The notes under the pieces are model-generated. The model did no database searches and was not told the DNA's origin. It worked only from the letters and a program-made list of their open reading frames with translations. From assembly GCA_023138735.1 (NCBI GenBank), contig JAGLOY010000013.1, positions 1 to 64,000 on the forward strand: a stretch of DNA of 64,000 bases, read 5' to 3'. This document shows positions 23,765-60,530 of this stretch, piece by piece; within the stretch, counting starts at the first letter, position 1, and each line of letters opens with the position of its first letter. The position numbers and the translations under genes are program-made. This stretch comes from Candidatus Aegiribacteria sp. Lineage in GTDB: Bacteria > Fermentibacterota > Fermentibacteria > Fermentibacterales > JCC-6.

Positions 23765-26700
23765 ATGATAAGACGAATAGTCGAATTCTGTCTGAAGAAT
23801 CCTGCCGCAGTGATCATGATCGCAGCGCTGGCAGGCGGTACGGGCATATGGGCACTGAGGACCACTCCCGTGGACGCTTTCCCGGACATATCCGAAAATC
23901 AGGTTATCGTTTCAACACAATGGGCGGGGAGGAGCCCCGATGATGTTCAGGATCAGATAACCTACCCGCTCTCAGTCGAACTTCAGGGCATTCCCGGCGT
24001 CAAACAGGTAAGAGGTATGTCCGGGTTCGGATTCAGCCGTGTATATGTCGTTTTCGATGATAATATAGATTTCTACTGGGCACGAACCCGTGTTCTCGAG
24101 CGTCTGGGCGGCCTTGGTGATCTTCTTCCGTACGATGCTCTGCCCCAGCTGGGTCCGGATGCCACACCTCTCGGACAGATATACTGGTATACGGTTGAAG
24201 GTCCGCAGGATCTTGGTTCGCTTCGGACTCTGCAGGATTACACCATCAAGTACGCGCTCCAGAGTATCCCCGGAGTTTCCGAAGTCGCAAGCATCGGTGG
24301 ATTTGTAACGGAGTATCAGGTTGATGTCGATCCGAACCTTCTGTTCAACTACGGATTGGATATTCAGCAGGTTTCAGAGGCGATCTCCAGGTCAAACATC
24401 GATGTGGGTGCAAGAACAATTGAATCGTCCGGAATGGAGTATATCGTCAGAGGGACAGGGTTCCTGGAGGGGATAGAGGACCTTGAGCAAGTTCTCGTTG
24501 CAAGCGTTGATGGAGTTCCTGTCATGCTTGGAGACATCTCTACGATCGAAACCGGTCCTGCGTTCCGCAGAGGAGCACTTGCGGATCACAACGGTGAGAT
24601 CGCCGGGGGGATTGTCGTCATGAGAAAGGATGCCAATCCCGTGCTCGTTATAGATGCAGTGGAGGAAAGACTGGCTGAAATCGCCCCGGCTCTTCCTGAA
24701 GGTGTTTCAATCACTCCTTATTACGATCGAAGAGAACTCGTCCTTGAAACAGTCGAAACCCTATCAGGCGTCATTGCGATGGAAATGCTGATTACGCTGA
24801 TAGTTATTCTGATATTCCTGGTTCACCTCAGAAGCTCTCTTATTGTGACCGCTACCTTGCCGTACGCTGTGCTGCTCTGTTTTGCGGCAATGAAAGTTAT
24901 TGGCATCTCGGCCAATATCATGAGCTTCGCGGGGATTGCGATCGCCATCGGCACACTGGTTGATATGGGAATAGTTGTTACGGAGAATATCCATCTCTCT
25001 CTAGCACGTGATAGTTTTAAAAATACACTTGTAAGCATACGTGATGCGGTTGCAGAGGTAGCTCCCGCGATACTTACATCGCTCGGGACAACTGTAATCA
25101 GTTTCGTGCCGGTATTCTTCCTCTCAGGGCAGAGCGGCAGGCTTTTCATACCTCTTGCCTGGACCAAAACCCTTGTTCTGACTGCTGCAGGCATTGTAGC
25201 AATCACGGTTGTACCGGTCCTGTCCCTGATTTTCATCGCAAAGGAACCAGGCGAGCGTAAACGGCTCAGAACACTACTGGCAATACTCGGTGCAAGCGCC
25301 CTCGCGGCATGGACAGCGTGGTCGCTCGGTCCGCCTTCATGGCTTCCTCTCCAGAGGTGGCTTCTTTCTACACTGGTCTTCGGAGGATCGGCATTTCTCT
25401 TCTGGCACCTTGCGGGTGAGCGGTTGCATACTGGAAAGCAGGACAGAATTACCCGTCGCATAACATCGGTATACGAACCGGTACTGAGATGGTGCCTTAC
25501 TCACCGCAAAACTTTTCTTGCCATGCCCGTAATCATTATTTTTCTGGGACTTATGTCAATTACAGGAGCAAAAGTTTTTCTGAGCCCTCTTGATTCAATA
25601 GGATTCAACACCGAAGAATTCAGATTGACGGCTCTGATTTCAGATCTTTTCCCGGGTATAGGCAGCGAGTTCATGCCGCCACTGGATGAGGGAAGTTTCC
25701 TCTTCATGCCTTCACTTCTTAACCAGGCAAGTCTTGGACAAACCGTAGAGACGATGATCACTCAGAATGAAATGATGATTGGCGTCCCGGAAGTTGACAG
25801 AGTAGTCGGTAAGGCTGGCAGGGCTGATTCACCACTTGACCCAGCTCCTGCAGGCATGATAGAGACCGTTATTACCCTGCTTCCCGAGGATGAGTGGAGA
25901 GAGGGCGTTACCTCGGCGGATATACTGAACGAACTCAGGGAAGCCACATCAATGCCTGGTATTGCACCCTCCTGGCTGCAGCCGATTGAAACCAGGATAG
26001 TTATGCTCCAGTCCGGGATCAGAAGCAATATCGGATGCGAAATACATGGTTCCGATTATCTGGAAATCGAAAGAATAGCTCTTGAAATAGAAAAAATTCT
26101 GGCGGAGATACCGGGTGCCGCTGACGTTTCAGCTCTCAGAACCGGCCGCAGACCTTACATTGAATTCACTGTGGACAGGCTAGTGGCTGCAAGATACGGT
26201 GTTTCTGTCGAACGGGTCCAGAGGACATTAGCTGCCGCAATAGGCGGCACATCAGCAACAACTGTGCTCTCGGGCAGAGAAAGGACCGATGTTCGTCTTC
26301 GATACGCCAGAGATTTCAGGAACGAGATATCCGACCTTGGTAGAATATTCGTGCGTACCATGTCCGGTTCGATGATCCCGGTTTCCCTGGTTGCCTCTAT
26401 AGAAACCGTTACCGGTCCTGCTATGATCAGGTCGGTCAATGGTGAGCTGGTCGGTTATGTCATGCTGAGTGCCGATGGCAGGGACGAAGGAGGGCTTGTT
26501 GAGGAAGCGGATGAAATCCTTAGAAACATAATCACAACCGAAGCTTCACTCTCACCGGAGGAACGAACCATAAACCTTCCGGACGGTTACTACTTCAGAT
26601 GGGTGGGAAACTACCTGAACCAGATGGAAGCGAAGAGAAGGTTCTCTCTGCTTATCCCTATCTGTCTTGCGGCGATCTTCGGGATCATGTACCTGCAGTT

Positions 26701-27679: not shown

Positions 27680-28462
27680 TTACATCTCCCGGACGATCAC
27701 AAAATCAGCCTGATCGGCTTCCCATGATTCATCCTCACCAATGACACTGACGGTCAGATACGAAACACCCGGTTCCAGCTGATCCGGTATTCCCGAGCGG
27801 TAATCGCTGTGAAAACTCCCGCATACGAATACACAGCTTATTCCTTCGATAGATGATGCCATTACTGCGTCCTTGAGGAGCTGAGCTCTGTACATGTTGA
27901 CAGGGTCCATGGGCATGGATTGCATCTGACCGCTCAGGGCTTCCATTGTAGCGAGGAATTGCTGCCGGTAGAAAACACTCGAGGAGTCTACGCTTATGTA
28001 CTCAAAGAACTCGGAACCTTCCGTATCCCCGAGACCCTCCCATCCTCTTCTTGCCACAGCAGAGGCAAAATGACGGGGTACGTTTGCGGCAATAACACTG
28101 TAGCCGTTCTGGGCGGCATACTCCACCATGGGATGGTAGTCCTCCAGATAATTGCTCCAGGGTCTTGCGGATTCGAGAAGCTCATCCAGGCTTAGGTCTC
28201 CCGAAAGGTACGAGTCAAGCAGCCCCTGCACATCGGTCTCGAACATCTCAAGGGCAAGGCACCGCTCATCGGACGCAAGGTTCGTCCAGATGTAGAGTTC
28301 CCACATATGCGCGAGCGCGTCATCATGCTTCTCCCCGATGAATACTACAGGGACTTCTTCAAGAATAGTTATCATTTCATCGGAGGTTACGGTATCTCCT
28401 CCATGATGGATTATTCCCTGGGGAAATGTAAGCACGAGCATTGCAGTAATTAGTATTCCCAA
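27680..28462 (-). CDS. ChaN family lipoprotein/haem-binding uptake protein
   Basis: VVFIGEKHDDALAHMWELYIW...LALEMFETDVQ...ARPWSNYLEDYHPMVEYAAQNGYSVIAANVPR. Confidence 0.85.
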   Translation of the reverse strand: MGILITAMLVLTFPQGIIHHGGDTVTSDEMITILEEVPVVFIGEKHDDALAHMWELYIWTNLASDERCLALEMFETDVQGLLDSYLSGDLSLDELLESARPWSNYLEDYHPMVEYAAQNGYSVIAANVPRHFASAVARRGWEGLGDTEGSEFFEYISVDSSSVFYRQQFLATMEALSGQMQSMPMDPVNMYRAQLLKDAVMASSIEGISCVFVCGSFHSDYRSGIPDQLEPGVSYLTVSVIGEDESWEADQADFVIVREM

Positions 28463-28548: not shown

Positions 28549-28692
28549 TTCACATGTGGTTAAGGGAATGGAACCAAGGTTTTCGAGCTGGCAAGCACCA
28601 GTTCGAATCCCATTGGGGGTACCAAATAGCAGAATTTAGAACTCATTCCCATCCATTGCGACAGTTCGAAATACCTCCACCAGGGGGTACTA
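28549..28692 (+). repeat. Degenerate tRNA-like sequence followed by one 67-68-nt tRNA-end-like repeat
   Basis: GTGGTTAAGG D-loop-like and AGTTCGAATCCCATTGGGGGTACCA; then AATAGCAGAATTTAGAACTCATTCCC...AGTTCGAAATACCTCCACCAGGGGGTACTA. Confidence 0.65.
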
Positions 28693-28763
28693 GATATCAA
28701 GTTTATCGAACTTGTTGACATCTGCATAAATACTTAAGATTCTATAATTGACTAAATAGAAGG

Positions 28764-30173
28764 ATGGTAATCATGCGTTATTTATTGAGCATAATGATTC
28801 TTTTGGTACTAGATGCGTTCGCATACGTCGATGTTGTTGGCTGTTCTTCGGGAAACTTCGTGGTCTGGGACAATGGTGTGGGAGCAGTGCGTCTGGCCGA
28901 GATAGAGGGTTCCCAGGACACACTTGAGTTCGGGCTGAATAACCCATCGCTGGGTTATACTGTCATTGACGGAGAGCCTCGTCTAGTACTGACAACATAT
29001 TCCTATAATCAGTTGGTTGCTGACTCCCTTTTCCTGATAGATCCTCTTCCCCTGTTCGTTGTGGGATCAAGGAGCGTTGCTTCATCTGACCTCTGCTGGC
29101 TCAGTATGCCAAGTATCGTTGAGGGCAGTATTAAGACTGCAAGGCATCAGAACGAGGAAGATGCCTTCTACATATCTGCTGACGCCTACCTGCCCATAAG
29201 CGGAGCTGGGGAAGGCAACGTCATATCAGCCCGTTTCCAGTGCGACACTTCGGGAGAACTTTACATTACAGACACTCTGGGAGTCAGCATAGACTCTTAT
29301 TCCGGAGGGATCAACTCCTACAGCAGTCCGGTAAGCTGCAGCTCATCAAACCCGAGCCAGCTATGGAGTTACATTAACTCATACATGTTCCCTTCATACG
29401 CAGTTTATGCAGGTGTTCACCAGATCGACGGAGACCCTGTCCCGGGGGACTTCGAGCCGATGCTTCATGATTGCTTTTATAGTACTGACTACGGTGGGGA
29501 AGTAAGGGCGGTTGGTTCCTGCGCCACGGAGGTGCTGGGATTCTGGACTACGAACGGCAACACCGAACTCTGGTACTCCGTTATCCAGCCCGGAGCAGTG
29601 GAACCGGACTCCTCCGAGCCTGCTCCCTATGGAATACCTGTACAGTCTGCAATAGCTATGAGTGCGAACCCCGATGATGACGGCCTGCTTCTGGTGTGGC
29701 AGCAAGGGAACGAGTTGAGGTGTGCCCACTGGGATGGCGAGTGGAACTCCTTCAACCATGTGGTGGAGACCGGCCTACCGGGTCTTTGCAACGGTAATCT
29801 GGCGGTCTGCAGCGTTGACTCGGGCTACATCGTCGTATGGGATTCGTACCCGGTACCTGAGACAAGGTTCATAGCCAGGGACATGGTGACCTCCATCGTC
29901 GGATCCCAGGGAGATCCCTTACAGGATGATATCCAGGTGTCACCCAATCCGGTCCTATCGGGACAGACTGCCATGATCAGTTTGGGTTCCGCCTCGAACG
30001 TTGGCTCAATAGAAGTCTACGACCTTAACGGAAGGCTGATAAGGGAACTGGAACCGGATGAGTCTGGAAATGCTTCTTTCGATACATCCGGCATTCCTCA
30101 GGGAACCTACTTCGTAAGAAGTATGACTGCCGGAGACGCGAGCACCCGAAAGATCCTTCTCCTTAGCGAATGA
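28764..30173 (+). CDS. Secreted protein of unknown function with T9SS-like C-terminal domain
   Basis: Signal peptide; tail SPNPVLSGQTAMISLG...IEVYDLNGRLIREL...RKILLLSE. Confidence 0.82.
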   Translation: MVIMRYLLSIMILLVLDAFAYVDVVGCSSGNFVVWDNGVGAVRLAEIEGSQDTLEFGLNNPSLGYTVIDGEPRLVLTTYSYNQLVADSLFLIDPLPLFVVGSRSVASSDLCWLSMPSIVEGSIKTARHQNEEDAFYISADAYLPISGAGEGNVISARFQCDTSGELYITDTLGVSIDSYSGGINSYSSPVSCSSSNPSQLWSYINSYMFPSYAVYAGVHQIDGDPVPGDFEPMLHDCFYSTDYGGEVRAVGSCATEVLGFWTTNGNTELWYSVIQPGAVEPDSSEPAPYGIPVQSAIAMSANPDDDGLLLVWQQGNELRCAHWDGEWNSFNHVVETGLPGLCNGNLAVCSVDSGYIVVWDSYPVPETRFIARDMVTSIVGSQGDPLQDDIQVSPNPVLSGQTAMISLGSASNVGSIEVYDLNGRLIRELEPDESGNASFDTSGIPQGTYFVRSMTAGDASTRKILLLSE

Positions 30174-30524
30174 AGCAGTCCAGTGAATTGAGAGTCTGAG
30201 GAAATCAGGAAGTATCGAGATCCAACCGAAAGGAGCAAGCTCTTCTGCAAAACGGTGGTGAACAATAGGAATCTTGATTTCAAACCGCTCCGGGAGTCTT
30301 TCCCGAGACAGCATATTTTCACAATAAACCACGGATTCCTGCTTGAAACTCGCATACTGTACTGAACCATCTACCGTCAAAGAAATGACCAACCTACAAT
30401 CCCTCGATACACCACATAAGGACACAACTGTTCCCTGAAGGCGGATCACGGAGATTTTAACCGACTTATATCTCGGGCACGTTATCTTGCCACGGAACGT
30501 AGTCGGCGCAGACTTCGCAAACAG

Positions 30525-30600
30525 ATTCAAGAGGTTCAGCTGGATAGATCATCGGCTTTGGTAGCCGGAAGCATGGATTCGAATCCCGTTGGGAGTACCA
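30525..30600 (+). pseudogene. Degenerate tRNA (76 nt with CCA; anticodon-loop reading TGG)
   Basis: ATTCAAG AG GTTC AGCTGGATA GATC A TCGGC TTTGGTA GCCGG AAGC ATGGA TTCGAAT CCCGT TGGGAGT A CCA; cloverleaf with several stem mismatches. Confidence 0.55.
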
Positions 30601-30734
30601 GATATCAGAATTTAGAACTCACTCCCAACAGTGATATAGTTCGAAATGCGTCCAGCACGGGGTACCAGTTTTCAGAATTTAGAATCCATTTCCAACCATG
30701 ACAGGAGTTCGAAATACCTCTACCAGGGGGTACC
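30601..30734 (+). repeat. Two tandem 67-nt tRNA-end-like repeats
   Basis: GATATCAGAATTTAGAACTCACTCCCAACAGTGATATAGTTCGAAATGCGTCCAGCACGGGGTACCA and GTTTTCAGAATTTAGAATCCATTTCCAACCATGACAGGAGTTCGAAATACCTCTACCAGGGGGTACC align throughout. Confidence 0.8.
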
Positions 30735-30766
30735 GCCCGGGACTCATACGGTTTGTTCACAGCAAA

Positions 30767-31534
30767 TTATTTACCGTTTCCAAGGACGACTATCCTGGTA
30801 GAAGAATTGACCACATCCGATCTACAGGTGTAAAGACCTGGAGTGAGACCGTTAATGCTTCCATCTCCACTGGAGACCACCACAAGTCTGCCTTGCATGT
30901 CATAGACCCTTATCTCTGTTCCCTCAGCCCATTGAGGCAGCGAAACGGCGAAGGAACCGTTTGACGGATTCGGAAAGACACTGAGGTTATCCTGCGTAAC
31001 GGAAGGGTCTTCCTCGTGGATCGAGCCTGGATGATTAGCTTCAATGGTCAGCTCTTCAAGAACGGGAGTTGAATCAGGGTTCGAAGTCAAAAAGACAACC
31101 TTATACTGCAGGTAGTCCACATTATCCGGCATTGAGTCAGAAATATCCGTGTACGAAACCGTAAAGGGGCCGTACCATTCACCCATCTGGCGGTGATCCA
31201 GGGAAGCTCTCACATAAAATTCCAGAGCCGTTTCCGATGGAGTGCTTGCATCCCAATAAATCAACCCCCACATTACAGCATCAGTTGGCTGGGGAATGGT
31301 CAGTATTGATGAAACAAGTACTCCGTACGTGCGGTAGCCTGATGAACCATCCTCCAGCGTAAGCTGATAAGGAGTCTGCCAGTTAACGGAATCTGAAATC
31401 AGAAAGTGATCGTCAAAATTCCAGACGGGATCCCTAACAATTGGACCTCCACTCCAGTCATACTGTGTGTTTGGAATCTGTGCTGTGGATTGCCCGGCTA
31501 AACTAAGAACAAAAACTGTGAATAGAATTCTCAT
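30767..31534 (-). CDS. Secreted protein of unknown function with N-terminal YDWSGG motif and T9SS-like tail
   Basis: Signal peptide, QYDWSGGPIVRDPVWNF; tail VFPNPSNGSFAVSLP...IRVYDMQGRLVVV. Confidence 0.85.
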   Translation of the reverse strand: MRILFTVFVLSLAGQSTAQIPNTQYDWSGGPIVRDPVWNFDDHFLISDSVNWQTPYQLTLEDGSSGYRTYGVLVSSILTIPQPTDAVMWGLIYWDASTPSETALEFYVRASLDHRQMGEWYGPFTVSYTDISDSMPDNVDYLQYKVVFLTSNPDSTPVLEELTIEANHPGSIHEEDPSVTQDNLSVFPNPSNGSFAVSLPQWAEGTEIRVYDMQGRLVVVSSGDGSINGLTPGLYTCRSDVVNSSTRIVVLGNGK

Positions 31535-31787: not shown

Positions 31788-31803
31788 TATGTACGGAGAT
31801 GAA

Positions 31804-32439
31804 ATGCCCGGAAGGAAAGTGTCCGAAAAAACTATAAGAAGGCTCAGCCACTATGCAAGGTGCCTCAGGAGAGCCAGAACCGACGGAGTACCGCTGGTTA
31901 CTTCCAAACATCTCTCTGAAAGATGCGGCATCTCATCCGCAGCCGTAAGGAAAGACCTTGCGTTTTTCGGAGAATTCGGGAAGCAGGGATCCGGGTATGG
32001 TGTATCGGACCTTCTTGAGAATATTGAAAGAATACTTGGTACCTGTGAACCTCCGGCTGTGATTGTGGTCGGAGCTGGGAACATCGGCAGTGTTCTACTG
32101 GAATCGGTACTTGATGGAACCGGCGGATACAGTTATTCCGCGCTTTTTGACAGCGATCCGAATATTATCGGCACAACGATTGCGGGAGTCACCGTTCAGC
32201 CACTTGCTGAACTCAGGGAGGCTTTGGGCGAGCATGGTGATGTTATTGCCATATTGGCAGTCCCTCCCGGAGAGGGACAGAATGCCGTCGATAATCTGGT
32301 AAGCACCGGATGCATCTCCATACTCAGCTTTACGCTCGAACCCCTCGAAGTTCCAGACGGAGTTGTTCTGCGATATGTCGAGGTGTCTACAGAGCTTGAT
32401 ATTCTTACACATTCGATGAAATGCAGGGATCGTTCATGA
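31804..32439 (+). CDS. rex: Redox-sensing transcriptional repressor Rex (copy 2)
   Basis: IRRLSHYARCLRRA...GISSAAVRKDLAFFGEFGKQGSGYGV...VGAGNIGSVL; ATG after CGGAGATGAA chosen. Confidence 0.93.
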   Translation: MPGRKVSEKTIRRLSHYARCLRRARTDGVPLVTSKHLSERCGISSAAVRKDLAFFGEFGKQGSGYGVSDLLENIERILGTCEPPAVIVVGAGNIGSVLLESVLDGTGGYSYSALFDSDPNIIGTTIAGVTVQPLAELREALGEHGDVIAILAVPPGEGQNAVDNLVSTGCISILSFTLEPLEVPDGVVLRYVEVSTELDILTHSMKCRDRS

Positions 32440-37019: not shown

Positions 37020-38405
37020 ATGGCTGAGCGTTCTCCTGATTCCTACAGGGAAATAATAGCAATCTCCTTTCCCATAATTGCAGCTATGGCAGGCAGAACG
37101 ATAATGATGTTCTGCGATAGACTGTTCCTCGCCCAGCACAGCCAGCTTGAGCTTCAGGCCGCTCTTCCTGCCGGTATTCTGAGCTTCACACTGCTCTGTA
37201 TCTTTTATGGTACAGTTTCATACTCAGGTACATTTATCGCTCAATATTTTGGTGCAGACGATAAGGAGGGATGTTCAAGATCCCTGGCACAGGGTCTGTT
37301 CCTCACAATGCTGTCCGCTCCGATTCTTGCTGCTCTCGCAGTCCCGGGAAGCCTTCTTTTCGATCTTTCCGGCCATGCTTCTGAAATAGTCGCGCTTGAG
37401 AAGATATACTTTCAGATTCTCATGTTTTCCGCGGCAGGACCTGTTTTCACTGCAGCGGCATCATCCTTCTGGAACGGTCGCGGGAAAACAGTTCCTACAA
37501 TGCTTGCTGTCATAACTGGAGCGGGGATCAATATTCTTCTTGATTACCTGATGATCTTCGGGAAATTTGGTTTTCCAGAAATGGGTATAAAGGGCGCGGC
37601 CATTGCAACAGCCATCTCATCATTTATCCCTGGTACTATACTGACAATCGCTGCCTTCACAGGGAAAACCGCTGTTGAATACAGGACCAGGGAGAACTTC
37701 AGATTCTCGAAAAGGCTTACCGGAAGAATAATCAGATTCGGGTTCCCGGCAGGTCTTCAGATATTCATGGATGTCGCAAGTTTTACAATTTTCATATTCC
37801 TCGCAGGAAGGCTTGGAGCCATCGATTTTACAGCGAATAACCTCGCTTTCAGCGTAAACAATCTGGCATTCAATCCTCTGCTGGGGTTCGGCTTCGCTAC
37901 AACGGTAATCGTTGGCAGGTGTATAGGAATGGGAAGAAATGATATGGCTGTGAAAGTCGTCCGGCGGACCCTGCTGCTTGCCATATGCTACTTTGTCCCT
38001 CTGGCCGCTACTTTTGTTCTTTTTCCCGGCTTTTATACGCGGCTGTTTTTCAGTCCGGATTCCGCATGTACAATTGAAGAGCTGATATCCACTTCAGGTA
38101 AACTTCTTGCGATCATAGCCGCCTGGGGTATTTTCGATGCTGTCACCCTCATGTATAGCGGAGCCCTCAGAGGAGCTGGAGACACGAAGTTCGTTATGTG
38201 GGTTTCCGGCCTGCTTGCGTGGCTCTTCTGGATACCCGGAGTTATATACCTTTACGCCGTTCAGAACGCGGGGATAGTTACCCTCTGGCTTTTCACCAGT
38301 TTTTACGTGGCCATCTTCGCCCTGGCGTTCTTCCTCCGGTTCAGAACCGGCAAATGGAAACGCATTGATCTCCTCGGGAGAACGGAGAAGAGATGTATCG
38401 AGTAG
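37020..38405 (+). CDS. MATE family efflux transporter
   Basis: 12-TM pattern; ITGAGINILLDYLMIFGKFGFPEMGIKGAAIATAISSF; GALRGAGDTKFVMW. Confidence 0.93.
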   Translation: MAERSPDSYREIIAISFPIIAAMAGRTIMMFCDRLFLAQHSQLELQAALPAGILSFTLLCIFYGTVSYSGTFIAQYFGADDKEGCSRSLAQGLFLTMLSAPILAALAVPGSLLFDLSGHASEIVALEKIYFQILMFSAAGPVFTAAASSFWNGRGKTVPTMLAVITGAGINILLDYLMIFGKFGFPEMGIKGAAIATAISSFIPGTILTIAAFTGKTAVEYRTRENFRFSKRLTGRIIRFGFPAGLQIFMDVASFTIFIFLAGRLGAIDFTANNLAFSVNNLAFNPLLGFGFATTVIVGRCIGMGRNDMAVKVVRRTLLLAICYFVPLAATFVLFPGFYTRLFFSPDSACTIEELISTSGKLLAIIAAWGIFDAVTLMYSGALRGAGDTKFVMWVSGLLAWLFWIPGVIYLYAVQNAGIVTLWLFTSFYVAIFALAFFLRFRTGKWKRIDLLGRTEKRCIE

Positions 38406-45515: not shown

Positions 45516-45938
45516 AGGGAATGGCTCAATAAAAGACCGTAGAGAAAGGAATTGTATTCCGAGCACTGCGCCATTGCCACTAATCCTGATTACGCGAGTC
45601 ATGAACCTCAATGCGAATACCATAGATCTAGCGACGCTCCTTTGCATGCCTGTACGTATTTGGCAAAAAATAATCATATATATGAAATCGAACTCTTACA
45701 GAGGTGAAGGGACTGATCAAGACAGAGTCTTCGGGATTCTACTATGTGGGCTGATCACGCAAACCTGGGCAGAAATGCTTGGAATGTGATGGTTACATCT
45801 TTATCCTGGAGGGCAACTGGAGGGGTCTGAGTCATTGACAAGAGTACTGCGCTACAGCACATTATGCTAGGTTGTGTTGTGGATAGACACCAACTATTCA
45901 TTCACAGAAACAGTAACCGTTTATCGAAGGAGGGGAAG

Positions 45939-47249
45939 ATGAAGAGAGTACAGTCAATTCCATCCATCCTGATGGCTGCATTTTTGATAGCCGTTACAGG
46001 AGGCTTCATAGCCTGCGGTGGGTCACAAGAAGAAGAGATTTTACACCAACCGATTACACCACAGGAAGAGACCACACACCAACCGATAACTTTGCAGCTG
46101 AAAACTTTAATCGAAAACAATCCTGAAATCGGGGAGTTATTGGAAGAGTCCATCGCGAAGGCAAAAGAAGCCAATCCCGATCCTGCAACAAATCCGGTTC
46201 AGAGTTTGGATGACTACTACGCGTACATAGACAGGGCTTCGCAGAGCCTGCCATTTAATATGTGGGACATTTCGACGGAATTATCGATGCGTGATCAGAT
46301 GCTGCAGGGTATCTGTTACCACTATTTCCTGGTAAGCCACCCTTTGCCTGAGCTGGAGAACAAGGGAATGTTCTCCAATTCCCTGCAGTACTACGAACCC
46401 TTTGCTTCCTGGATGCGGGATTTCACCGTAGTCCAGGGGCAGTACATGGATACCGAGGATTCCTGGAGTGAAGAGATCTACCAGAAGATATATGCCGATG
46501 CTGATTTCGGTCTGCAGACAGACTGGTACGAAGATCCGTCCAACTGGAACACCTTCAACAGGTTCTTCTCCAAGTACCTGTCGTCCCCTGACGTACGCCC
46601 CCTTGCATTCCCTGACGATGCATCTGTAGTCGTATCACCGGCGGACTGTGTTCCCCAGGGTGTCTGGAGCATAAGTGCCGATTCCGATATCGAGGTCGAA
46701 GAAGGCCTTGAGGTCAAGCTGTTGACTTATTACAGTATCCACGATCTTCTGAAGTCCGACAGCGAATACAGGGATGCCTTTGTAGGCGGCGTACTCACTC
46801 ATGTATTCCTGAACGTCTACGACTACCATCGCTACCACTTCGCAGTAGGAGGGGAGATCGTAGAGAAAGCGAGCCTTACAAGGAACGTAGCTCTGGAGGT
46901 GTCGTGGGATGAAGAGCAGGATAAATACATCCCTCTCGATACCACCGGATGGCAGTTCTCTCAGACTCTGGGTTACGTAATTGTAGATACCGGGGAATAC
47001 GGACTTGTTGCACTGATTCCTATGGGCATGGCCATGGTATCATCGGTCAATTTCGAGGATGATGTCACCGTGGGCAGTACCCTGGAAAAGGGTGACATGC
47101 TAGGTACCTTCATGTTCGGAGGGTCCGACTTCATAATCCTCTTCCAGGAAGAAGCCGGCTTCGAGATCACTGCGCCTATGTCAAACGATACTGTGTATAC
47201 GCATATCCATATGGGTGAGGAATACGGTCGAATGGGTGGTGCGGAATAG
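45939..47249 (+). CDS. PSD/PsiD-family decarboxylase-like lipoprotein
   Basis: Lipobox GGFIACGGS; WNTFNRFFSKYL; FLNVYDYHRYHFAVGGEIVE; KGDMLGTFMFGGSDFIILF (candidate GGS self-cleavage, Ser codon at 47124). Confidence 0.78.
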   Translation: MKRVQSIPSILMAAFLIAVTGGFIACGGSQEEEILHQPITPQEETTHQPITLQLKTLIENNPEIGELLEESIAKAKEANPDPATNPVQSLDDYYAYIDRASQSLPFNMWDISTELSMRDQMLQGICYHYFLVSHPLPELENKGMFSNSLQYYEPFASWMRDFTVVQGQYMDTEDSWSEEIYQKIYADADFGLQTDWYEDPSNWNTFNRFFSKYLSSPDVRPLAFPDDASVVVSPADCVPQGVWSISADSDIEVEEGLEVKLLTYYSIHDLLKSDSEYRDAFVGGVLTHVFLNVYDYHRYHFAVGGEIVEKASLTRNVALEVSWDEEQDKYIPLDTTGWQFSQTLGYVIVDTGEYGLVALIPMGMAMVSSVNFEDDVTVGSTLEKGDMLGTFMFGGSDFIILFQEEAGFEITAPMSNDTVYTHIHMGEEYGRMGGAE

Positions 47250-60456: not shown

Positions 60457-60530
60457 TGGCTGGCAGGCAGGGATTCGAACCCCGATTGGCGGATCCAGAG
60501 ACCGCAGTCCTACCCTTGGACGACCCGCCA
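60457..60530 (-). tRNA. tRNA-Gln (anticodon CTG), CCA encoded
   Basis: TGGCGGG TC GTCC AAGGGTA GGAC T GCGGT CTCTGGA TCCGC ...GGGGTTCGAATCCC... CCTGCCA G CCA; acceptor, D and T arms pair; U33 present, anticodon CTG. Confidence 0.92.

What the first reader, a model, noticed from the sequence alone, without database searches (positions are those of the whole stretch)
28549..30734. Single-gene segment flanked by degenerate tRNAs with 67-nt tRNA-end-like tandem repeats
Both flanks of the 28764-30173 gene begin with a tRNA-like 76-mer ending TTCGAATCCCrTTGGGrGTACCA, followed by one (left) or two (right) 67-68-nt repeats CAGAATTTAGAAYYCAYTYCCA...AGTTCGAAATRCSTCYASCASGGGGTACCA. Each repeat itself ends with a T-loop-like TTCGAAAT and GTACCA, as if the tRNA 3' half had been duplicated serially. 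The direct-repeat arrangement around one secreted-protein gene resembles a cassette or a recombination pair.
Basis: partly seen in the sequence, partly recalled or inferred. Interest (0 to 1): 0.7.

Follow-up and report, generated by a model that had tools for sequence, protein, structure and literature searches.

The report
tRNA-headed serine-integrase gene-cassette arrays
The odd repeats are recombination sites of a gene-collecting system: genes sit in rows like beads, each row starting with the tail end of a tRNA gene, which looks like an integron but appears to use an unrelated enzyme (a serine integrase) and, as far as could be searched, has not been described.

Summary
The same sites recur at dozens of loci in this genome and in 29 of 42 genomes of its order (taxon: Candidatus Aegiribacteria and two related genera). 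They come in two forms that differ by exactly 5 nt: a B-type, equal to the tRNA-Arg 3' end (GTTCGAA-9-GGGTACCA), and a P-type (GTTCNAA-14-GGGTACCA). All 36 arrays that hold both forms start with a B-type; P-types then separate small cassettes with one gene or none. The 67-nt units are gene-less mini-cassettes. Large serine integrases in these genomes sit antisense against tRNA 3' ends or B-type array heads, and all five integrase/tRNA elements whose far end was found show the same +5 spacing there, the known attP/attB difference of serine integrases. The ChaN-Rex interval (this window) holds different cargo in six species. Best reading: cassette arrays made by tRNA-Arg-targeting serine integrases. 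Recombination itself, and which integrase does it, remain inferred. Canonical integrons (IntI plus attC) exist in the same genomes, almost always on other contigs.

The parts
27680..28462 (-). left chromosomal flank: ChaN-like haem-binding protein gene, conserved next to this hotspot in G003, G015, G006, G002, G016
   Evidence: PF04187 162 bits; synteny
28600..28624 (+). B-type head site, 25-nt copy of the tRNA-Arg(CCG) 3' end (AGTTCGAATCCCATTGGGGGTACCA); attI-like start of the array
   Evidence: the same kind of junction at the same locus in G015, G002, G006
28625..28692 (+). 68-nt gene-less mini-cassette (unit) ending in a P-type site at 28664-28692
28764..30173 (+). cargo gene, 469 aa, signal-peptide-like start and Por_Secre_tail C-terminal sorting domain; a distant homologue (26% over 488 aa) is the gene of a P-site-bounded cassette at G000:C101:43639-45084
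   Evidence: PF18962 34.6 bits
30525..30600 (+). decayed full-length tRNA-Arg(CCG) copy (anticodon now TGG), whose 3' end is a second B-type site at 30577-30600
   Evidence: Rfam RF00005 26 bits
30601..30667 (+). 67-nt mini-cassette, P-type site at 30639-30667
30668..30735 (+). 68-nt mini-cassette, P-type site at 30707-30735
30767..31534 (-). probable further cargo: 255-aa Por_Secre_tail protein of a family found on many array contigs (TQxDWSGG proteins)
   Evidence: PF18962 30 bits; homologues on array contigs of g1 and g5; not in this interval in relatives
31789..32439 (+). right chromosomal flank: Rex-like redox repressor gene (named from knowledge of the family, not scanned)
   Evidence: conserved partner of the hotspot

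Best explanation
The segment is part of a gene-cassette array built by site-specific recombination at a tRNA-Arg 3' end. A large serine integrase recognises the T-arm-to-CCA end of tRNA-Arg (attB-like: GTTC motif near the crossover, left half 'B') and an element-borne site with the same motif 5 bp farther out (attP-like, left half 'P'); both share the right half GGGGTACCA, so insertion restores the tRNA 3' end. Repeated insertion behind the same head gives rows: one B-type head, then cassettes each closed by a P-type site. A cassette runs from GGGGTACCA through a gene (or nothing: the 67-nt units) to GTTCNAANNNN. Copies of the 25-nt tRNA end at other loci, as here between ChaN and Rex, are heads of displaced arrays. 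Shown by sequence: the two site forms, the 5-nt shift, head-first order, variable cargo at a fixed locus, integrases abutting heads and tRNAs. Inferred: that the serine integrase moves the cassettes (mostly in trans), that new cassettes enter at the head, and the exact crossover dinucleotide.
For: Spacing of GTTCNAA to GGGTACCA is 9 in 32 and 14 in 59 of 127 sites over 1.40 Mb, no other spacing more than once; in 20 shuffles 743 sites gave these spacings 1 and 3 times. 36 of 36 arrays with both forms start with B; under random order P is about 1e-18. Serine integrases (Resolvase + Recombinase + zinc ribbon) abut tRNA-Ser, Glu, Asn, Arg 3' ends or B-type heads, antisense, with the C-terminus read through the site (9 of 9 array-type with the head on the contig). 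Five of five integrase/tRNA elements with a found far end show left spacing 11 against 6 in the tRNA, the attP/attB shift of the LI integrase (PMC3783163). Nine of ten array integrases fall in one clade with a tRNA-Arg(TCT) integrase, support 97/95. Cross-species homology breaks at GGGGTACCA on the left of cassettes A-C and, in A, inside the P-site on the right. The locus has different cargo in G000, G015, G002, G006, G003, G016.
Against: Most array-bearing genomes have no detected integrase (PF07508 in 10 of 19 and 5 of 13), though all are fragmented and contigs often break at these repeats. The integrase at G000:C177 abuts a tRNA-Arg-type head but groups with tRNA-Glu integrases. In standard serine-integrase chemistry a B/P' hybrid is not a good attB, so how insertion at the head is repeated is unexplained. 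Cassette G013:C307/G017:C28 (98% identical) begins at a place without GGGGTACCA, and in case B the right P-site is shared in full. Cassette ORFs are sense in 50 and antisense in 32. In the window the gene is bounded on the right by a pseudo-tRNA head, not a P-site. No recombination was observed.
Confidence: 0.72

Rival explanations
1. The arrays are divergent or decayed classical integrons: the units are attC sites and IntI moves the cassettes.
For: True integron integrases (TIGR02249, up to 476 bits) occur over cut-off in 10 of 19 and 9 of 13 genomes; cassettes are small, hold toxin-antitoxin and unknown genes, and the P-site begins with GTT; the long unit has a short inverted repeat TTTAGAAC/GTTCGAAA.
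Against: The 14 IntI loci of g1 that were fetched carry no P-sites nearby, and the one examined closely has its own canonical attC sites (G000:C127); IntI and P-sites are on different contigs except G016:C108; most P-sites have no R''/L'' partner upstream; conservation extends 29-37 nt downstream of GTT; homology breaks at GGGGTACCA, not at G^TT.
Confidence: 0.08
2. A tyrosine recombinase (Xer-like or an unseen integrase) works on a 29-bp core site, like tRNA islands or p-dif modules.
For: tRNA 3' ends are classic tyrosine-integrase targets (PMC4383910); an XerA-like protein (G000:C101:9429-10349) is present.
Against: Relatives of that protein occur in nearly all genomes of the genus including those without sites; the +5 shift at five tRNAs occurs where serine integrases sit; no tyrosine integrase abuts a head in the loci examined.
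Confidence: 0.1
3. Old islands accreted at tRNA-Arg and fell apart: the rows are passive relics of several serine-integrase elements, shuffled by homologous recombination between repeats, with no present cassette exchange. (Shares the serine-integrase origin of the sites with the best explanation; differs on whether a cassette system operates.)
For: Many sites are degenerate; most genomes lack an integrase; mini-units could be deletion remnants.
Against: Near-identical cassettes (96-98.5%) lie in different contexts in different species; regular one-gene spacing in g5 arrays; 48 mini-intervals cluster at 31 and 57-69 nt.
Confidence: 0.25
4. Serial slippage duplication of a tRNA 3' half.
For: Units resemble the tRNA end and lie in tandem.
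Against: Units contain about 37 nt with no tRNA counterpart and a fixed 5-nt longer arm, and recur next to unrelated genes in many genomes.
Confidence: 0.02

Closest known systems
Integrons (IntI, attI, attC; incl. integrase-less CALIN arrays)
   Same: Rows of small cassettes with mostly one gene, a special head site, one site per cassette, recombinase gene at the head facing it (where present), toxin-antitoxin and unknown cargo
   Different: No IntI at the arrays, no folded attC, sites with a 5-bp B/P difference, tRNA-derived head, cargo in both orientations, serine instead of tyrosine recombinase
Serine-integrase integrative elements / composite SCC islands (Ccr)
   Same: Serine recombinase with Resolvase, Recombinase and zinc-ribbon domains; integrase beside the att site; target 3' end restored; tandem elements
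   Different: Target is a tRNA 3' end instead of rlmH; cassettes of 31 nt to 3 kb in long rows, mostly without their own recombinase
tRNA-gene genomic islands (Islander type)
   Same: tRNA 3' end restored, displaced fragment at the far end
   Different: Those use tyrosine integrases; [quoted passage not shown]
p-dif (Xer) modules
   Same: Gene modules bounded by about 28-bp sites (from memory, not tested)
   Different: Site sequence unrelated; head/tail polarity and tRNA end absent there (from memory)

Membership tests
Integron | IntI (TIGR02249) gene at the array | tested here: not met
   No P-type site at 14 fetched IntI loci; contigs disjoint except G016:C108
Integron | attC with R''/L''/L'/R' and GTTRRRY crossover | tested here: not met
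   Sites read GTTCNAA; no upstream partner at most sites; breaks at GGGGTACCA; one cassette starts at GTTGAAC
Integron | head site plus one site per single-gene cassette | tested here: met
   36/36 arrays head-first; 86 gene-bearing intervals, median 1055 nt
Integron | cassette genes nearly all in the same orientation | tested here: not met
   50 sense, 32 antisense
Large serine integrase element | Resolvase + Recombinase (+ zinc ribbon) protein at one end | tested here: met
   for the loci that carry one; most arrays, including the window's, show none
Large serine integrase element | zinc-ribbon motif 5 bp farther out in attP than attB | tested here: met
   rule from PMC3783163. Only the left arms show it clearly
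Large serine integrase element | attP x attB recombination by that protein | not testable with these tools
   needs an assay
SCC (Ccr) element | CcrA/B/C over the curated cut-off, rlmH target | tested here: not met
   CcrB 98-110 bits against a cut-off of 900; targets are tRNA ends
tRNA gene (left and right 76-mers) | tRNA covariance score over gathering | tested here: not met
   right 26 bits < 29, left no match
tRNA island of tyrosine-integrase type | tyrosine integrase at the island end | tested here: not met
   none at the heads examined

The most novel reading that the evidence does not exclude
An independent, serine-recombinase-based counterpart of the integron: tRNA-Arg 3' end as attI, P-type half-sites as attC, a tRNA-Arg-lineage large serine integrase as the platform enzyme, collecting single genes in trans across a bacterial family.
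Probability: 0.5. Interest if true: 0.92.

Novelty: new variant of a known kind. Interest (0 to 1): 0.82.

Why it matters
Integrons are the textbook cassette collectors, all built on one tyrosine recombinase. A second, unrelated solution would show that cassette capture evolved more than once and would give a new source of compact serine-integrase sites. Separately, serine integrases that use tRNA 3' ends contradict the stated rule that only tyrosine integrases do (PMC4383910, 2014), and the attP/attB 5-bp rule becomes readable from natural genome sequence at many sites.

Tried and rejected
Rfam: nothing meaningful apart from the sub-threshold tRNA. attC reading of the 67-nt unit: RNA folds of single units are no better than shuffles (z -0.05 to -1.8; the 145-nt left stretch gives z -3.3, mostly a hairpin with upstream sequence), and R'' is missing at most sites. 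XerA-like recombinase as the enzyme: present also in genomes without sites. Literature searches found no serine-integrase cassette arrays and nothing on such sites in Aegiribacteria, in an open-access library only. A genome-contig scan with the Glu-type integrase found only the window's own genus. Searches failed for technical reasons.

Full report
What is in the window. The right 76-mer is a decayed tRNA-Arg copy: its relative at G000:C63:11633-11708 is an intact tRNA-Arg(CCG) (65 bits) directly followed by one 68-nt unit, the same order as in the window. On the left only 25 nt, from the T-loop to CCA, are tRNA-like. The gene between (469 aa) has a Por_Secre_tail sorting domain.

The sites are widespread. 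BLAST with the left flank finds 23 places in the genome, the weakest of them chance level. A 40-nt sequence model (R1) built from 32 copies finds 27 matches in this genome at E<=0.1 and matches in 17 of 19 genomes of the genus; at E<=0.001 in 29 of 42 genomes of the order, in three genera of one family (16 of 19 in g1, the single g2 genome, 12 of 13 in g5) and none in the other families. A near-identical integrase contig is titled Candidatus Aegiribacteria sp., so g1 is taken to be that genus.

Two forms, five bases apart. In 1.40 Mb of fetched DNA there are 127 GGGTACCA sites; 91 have a GTTCNAA-like motif upstream at a fixed distance, either 9 nt (32 sites) or 14 nt (59 sites), 27 have none and the rest are scattered singly. 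The 9-nt form is the tRNA-Arg(CCG) gene itself or a 25-nt copy of its end; the 14-nt form is the end of the 67-nt units and of gene cassettes. The fetched DNA was chosen for such sites, so the numbers describe the sites, not their genome-wide density; the shuffles show that the spacing is not chance.

Order. In 36 of 36 same-strand clusters that contain both forms, the tRNA-like form comes first. On the long contigs of sister genus g5 this reads as full arrays: G035:C1 head at 252114 then P-sites to 261044, mostly one gene per interval; G022:C52 head 177453 then P-sites to 187148 including a run of 60-70-nt empty intervals; G029:C92 with HipBA-like and VapBC-like cassettes (these gene names from sequence appearance). 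Of 146 intervals, 48 are under 80 nt (mostly 31 and 57-69 nt) and 86 are 300-3000 nt, median 1055.

Cassette ends. Four cassettes shared between species at 96-98.5% identity show where exchange happens. Cassettes A (HicAB), B (Fic domain) and C begin to match at GGGGTACCA, preceded by different left halves: in case C a P-site in one genome and a tRNA-end in the other. A ends at GTTCTAAAAGC, inside the next P-site. So exchange most simply lies between the left motif and GGGGTACCA. The fourth (G017:C28/G013:C307, 98%) starts elsewhere and does not fit cleanly; in B the right P-site is shared in full.

The window locus is a hotspot. Between the ChaN and Rex genes, G000 has the 469-aa and 255-aa genes, G015 an NYN-domain gene, G002 three segments bounded by P-sites, and G006, G003 and G016 other genes. 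G015, G002 and G006 share the left junction ...CTAGTTCGAATCCC. Homologues of both window genes occur in other arrays.

The enzyme. Integron integrases are present but away from these sites. Large serine integrases are the alternative. They abut 3' ends of tRNA-Ser, Glu, Asn and Arg, or B-type heads that are no longer tRNAs, antisense, and in those read in full the last codons run through the site; G018:C169 ends ARQDSNLWPAD, the antisense of the tRNA end. For integrases at real tRNAs the far end should be P-half plus the tRNA 3' end. It was found for five elements (Asn G006:C3; Glu G013:C262, G000:C14, G001:C12; Arg(ACG) G035:C5, one mismatch), and in all five the motif is 11 instead of 6 nt from the shared tail. 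The last three were searched after the rule had been seen in the first two; for four other elements no far end was found on the DNA held. Rutherford et al. report the same 5-bp displacement of the zinc-ribbon motif between attP and attB of the LI integrase (PMC3783163). Nine of ten array integrases fall, with the tRNA-Arg(TCT) integrase of G011:C88, in one clade (97/95); the C177 integrase does not.

Mechanism and its gaps. I infer attB = tRNA-Arg 3' end, P-site = element half-site, rows by repeated insertion at the head. The unsolved step is chemistry: after one insertion the head is B/P', which textbook serine integrases do not use as attB. The right arms of B' and P' look alike near the centre, which may relax this, or homologous recombination may do the shuffling (rival 3). 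The scarcity of integrases in array-bearing genomes may be assembly loss (contigs end in these repeats, e.g. G007:C38, G017:C82) or action in trans. No serine integrase was found in the window itself.

Comparison. It works like an integron but fails the integron's defining tests; it belongs to serine-integrase elements by domains and site geometry but not to SCC. [quoted passage not shown] later databases were not searched. I file it as a new variant of serine-integrase element arrays and keep the stronger claim (an independent integron counterpart) as the novel case.

Noticed in passing
G000:C127:14927-18700 (L121): Canonical integron in the same genome: 396-aa IntI (352 bits, about 87-aa extra N-terminus) divergent from cassettes with CAGCAG...CTGCTG attC sites; a second IntI at C169:12618-13838 and a degraded one at C101:12295-13103.
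   Followed up: partly
L190 (G015:C33) 3241 onward; also G011:C54, G002:C107, G016:C108, G006:C33: A palindromic stretch AAAGGGACGGAGGTAATTA...TAATTACCTCCGTCCCTTT starts directly after CCA of tRNA-Arg or of a P-site in many genomes; terminator, mini-element or part of a right half-site.
   Followed up: no
L137 (G017:C128) 37796-37840, minus strand: Hybrid head: 3' half of tRNA-Arg(TCT) joined to the TTTGGGGTACCA end instead of its own CGGGCGTACCA, as expected of a B/P' junction.
   Followed up: partly
L173 (G006:C156) about 16780; L024 (G000:C101) 39270; L107 (G016:C59) 5740: A third left half, CCAACTNGAAATCATYA, also precedes GGGGTACCA; possibly a second integrase specificity.
   Followed up: no
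L128 (G006:C105) 24872-25107: Probable empty site: tRNA next to the HemW-like gene directly followed by the ADH-like gene, where G016:C60 has an array with HipBA.
   Followed up: partly
L154 (G018:C169) 45650-47230: Integrase C-terminus (ARQDSNLWPAD) is encoded by the antisense strand of the tRNA 3' end.
   Followed up: partly
window 60457-60530: The only tRNA gene ARAGORN calls in the window, tRNA-Gln(CTG).
   Followed up: no
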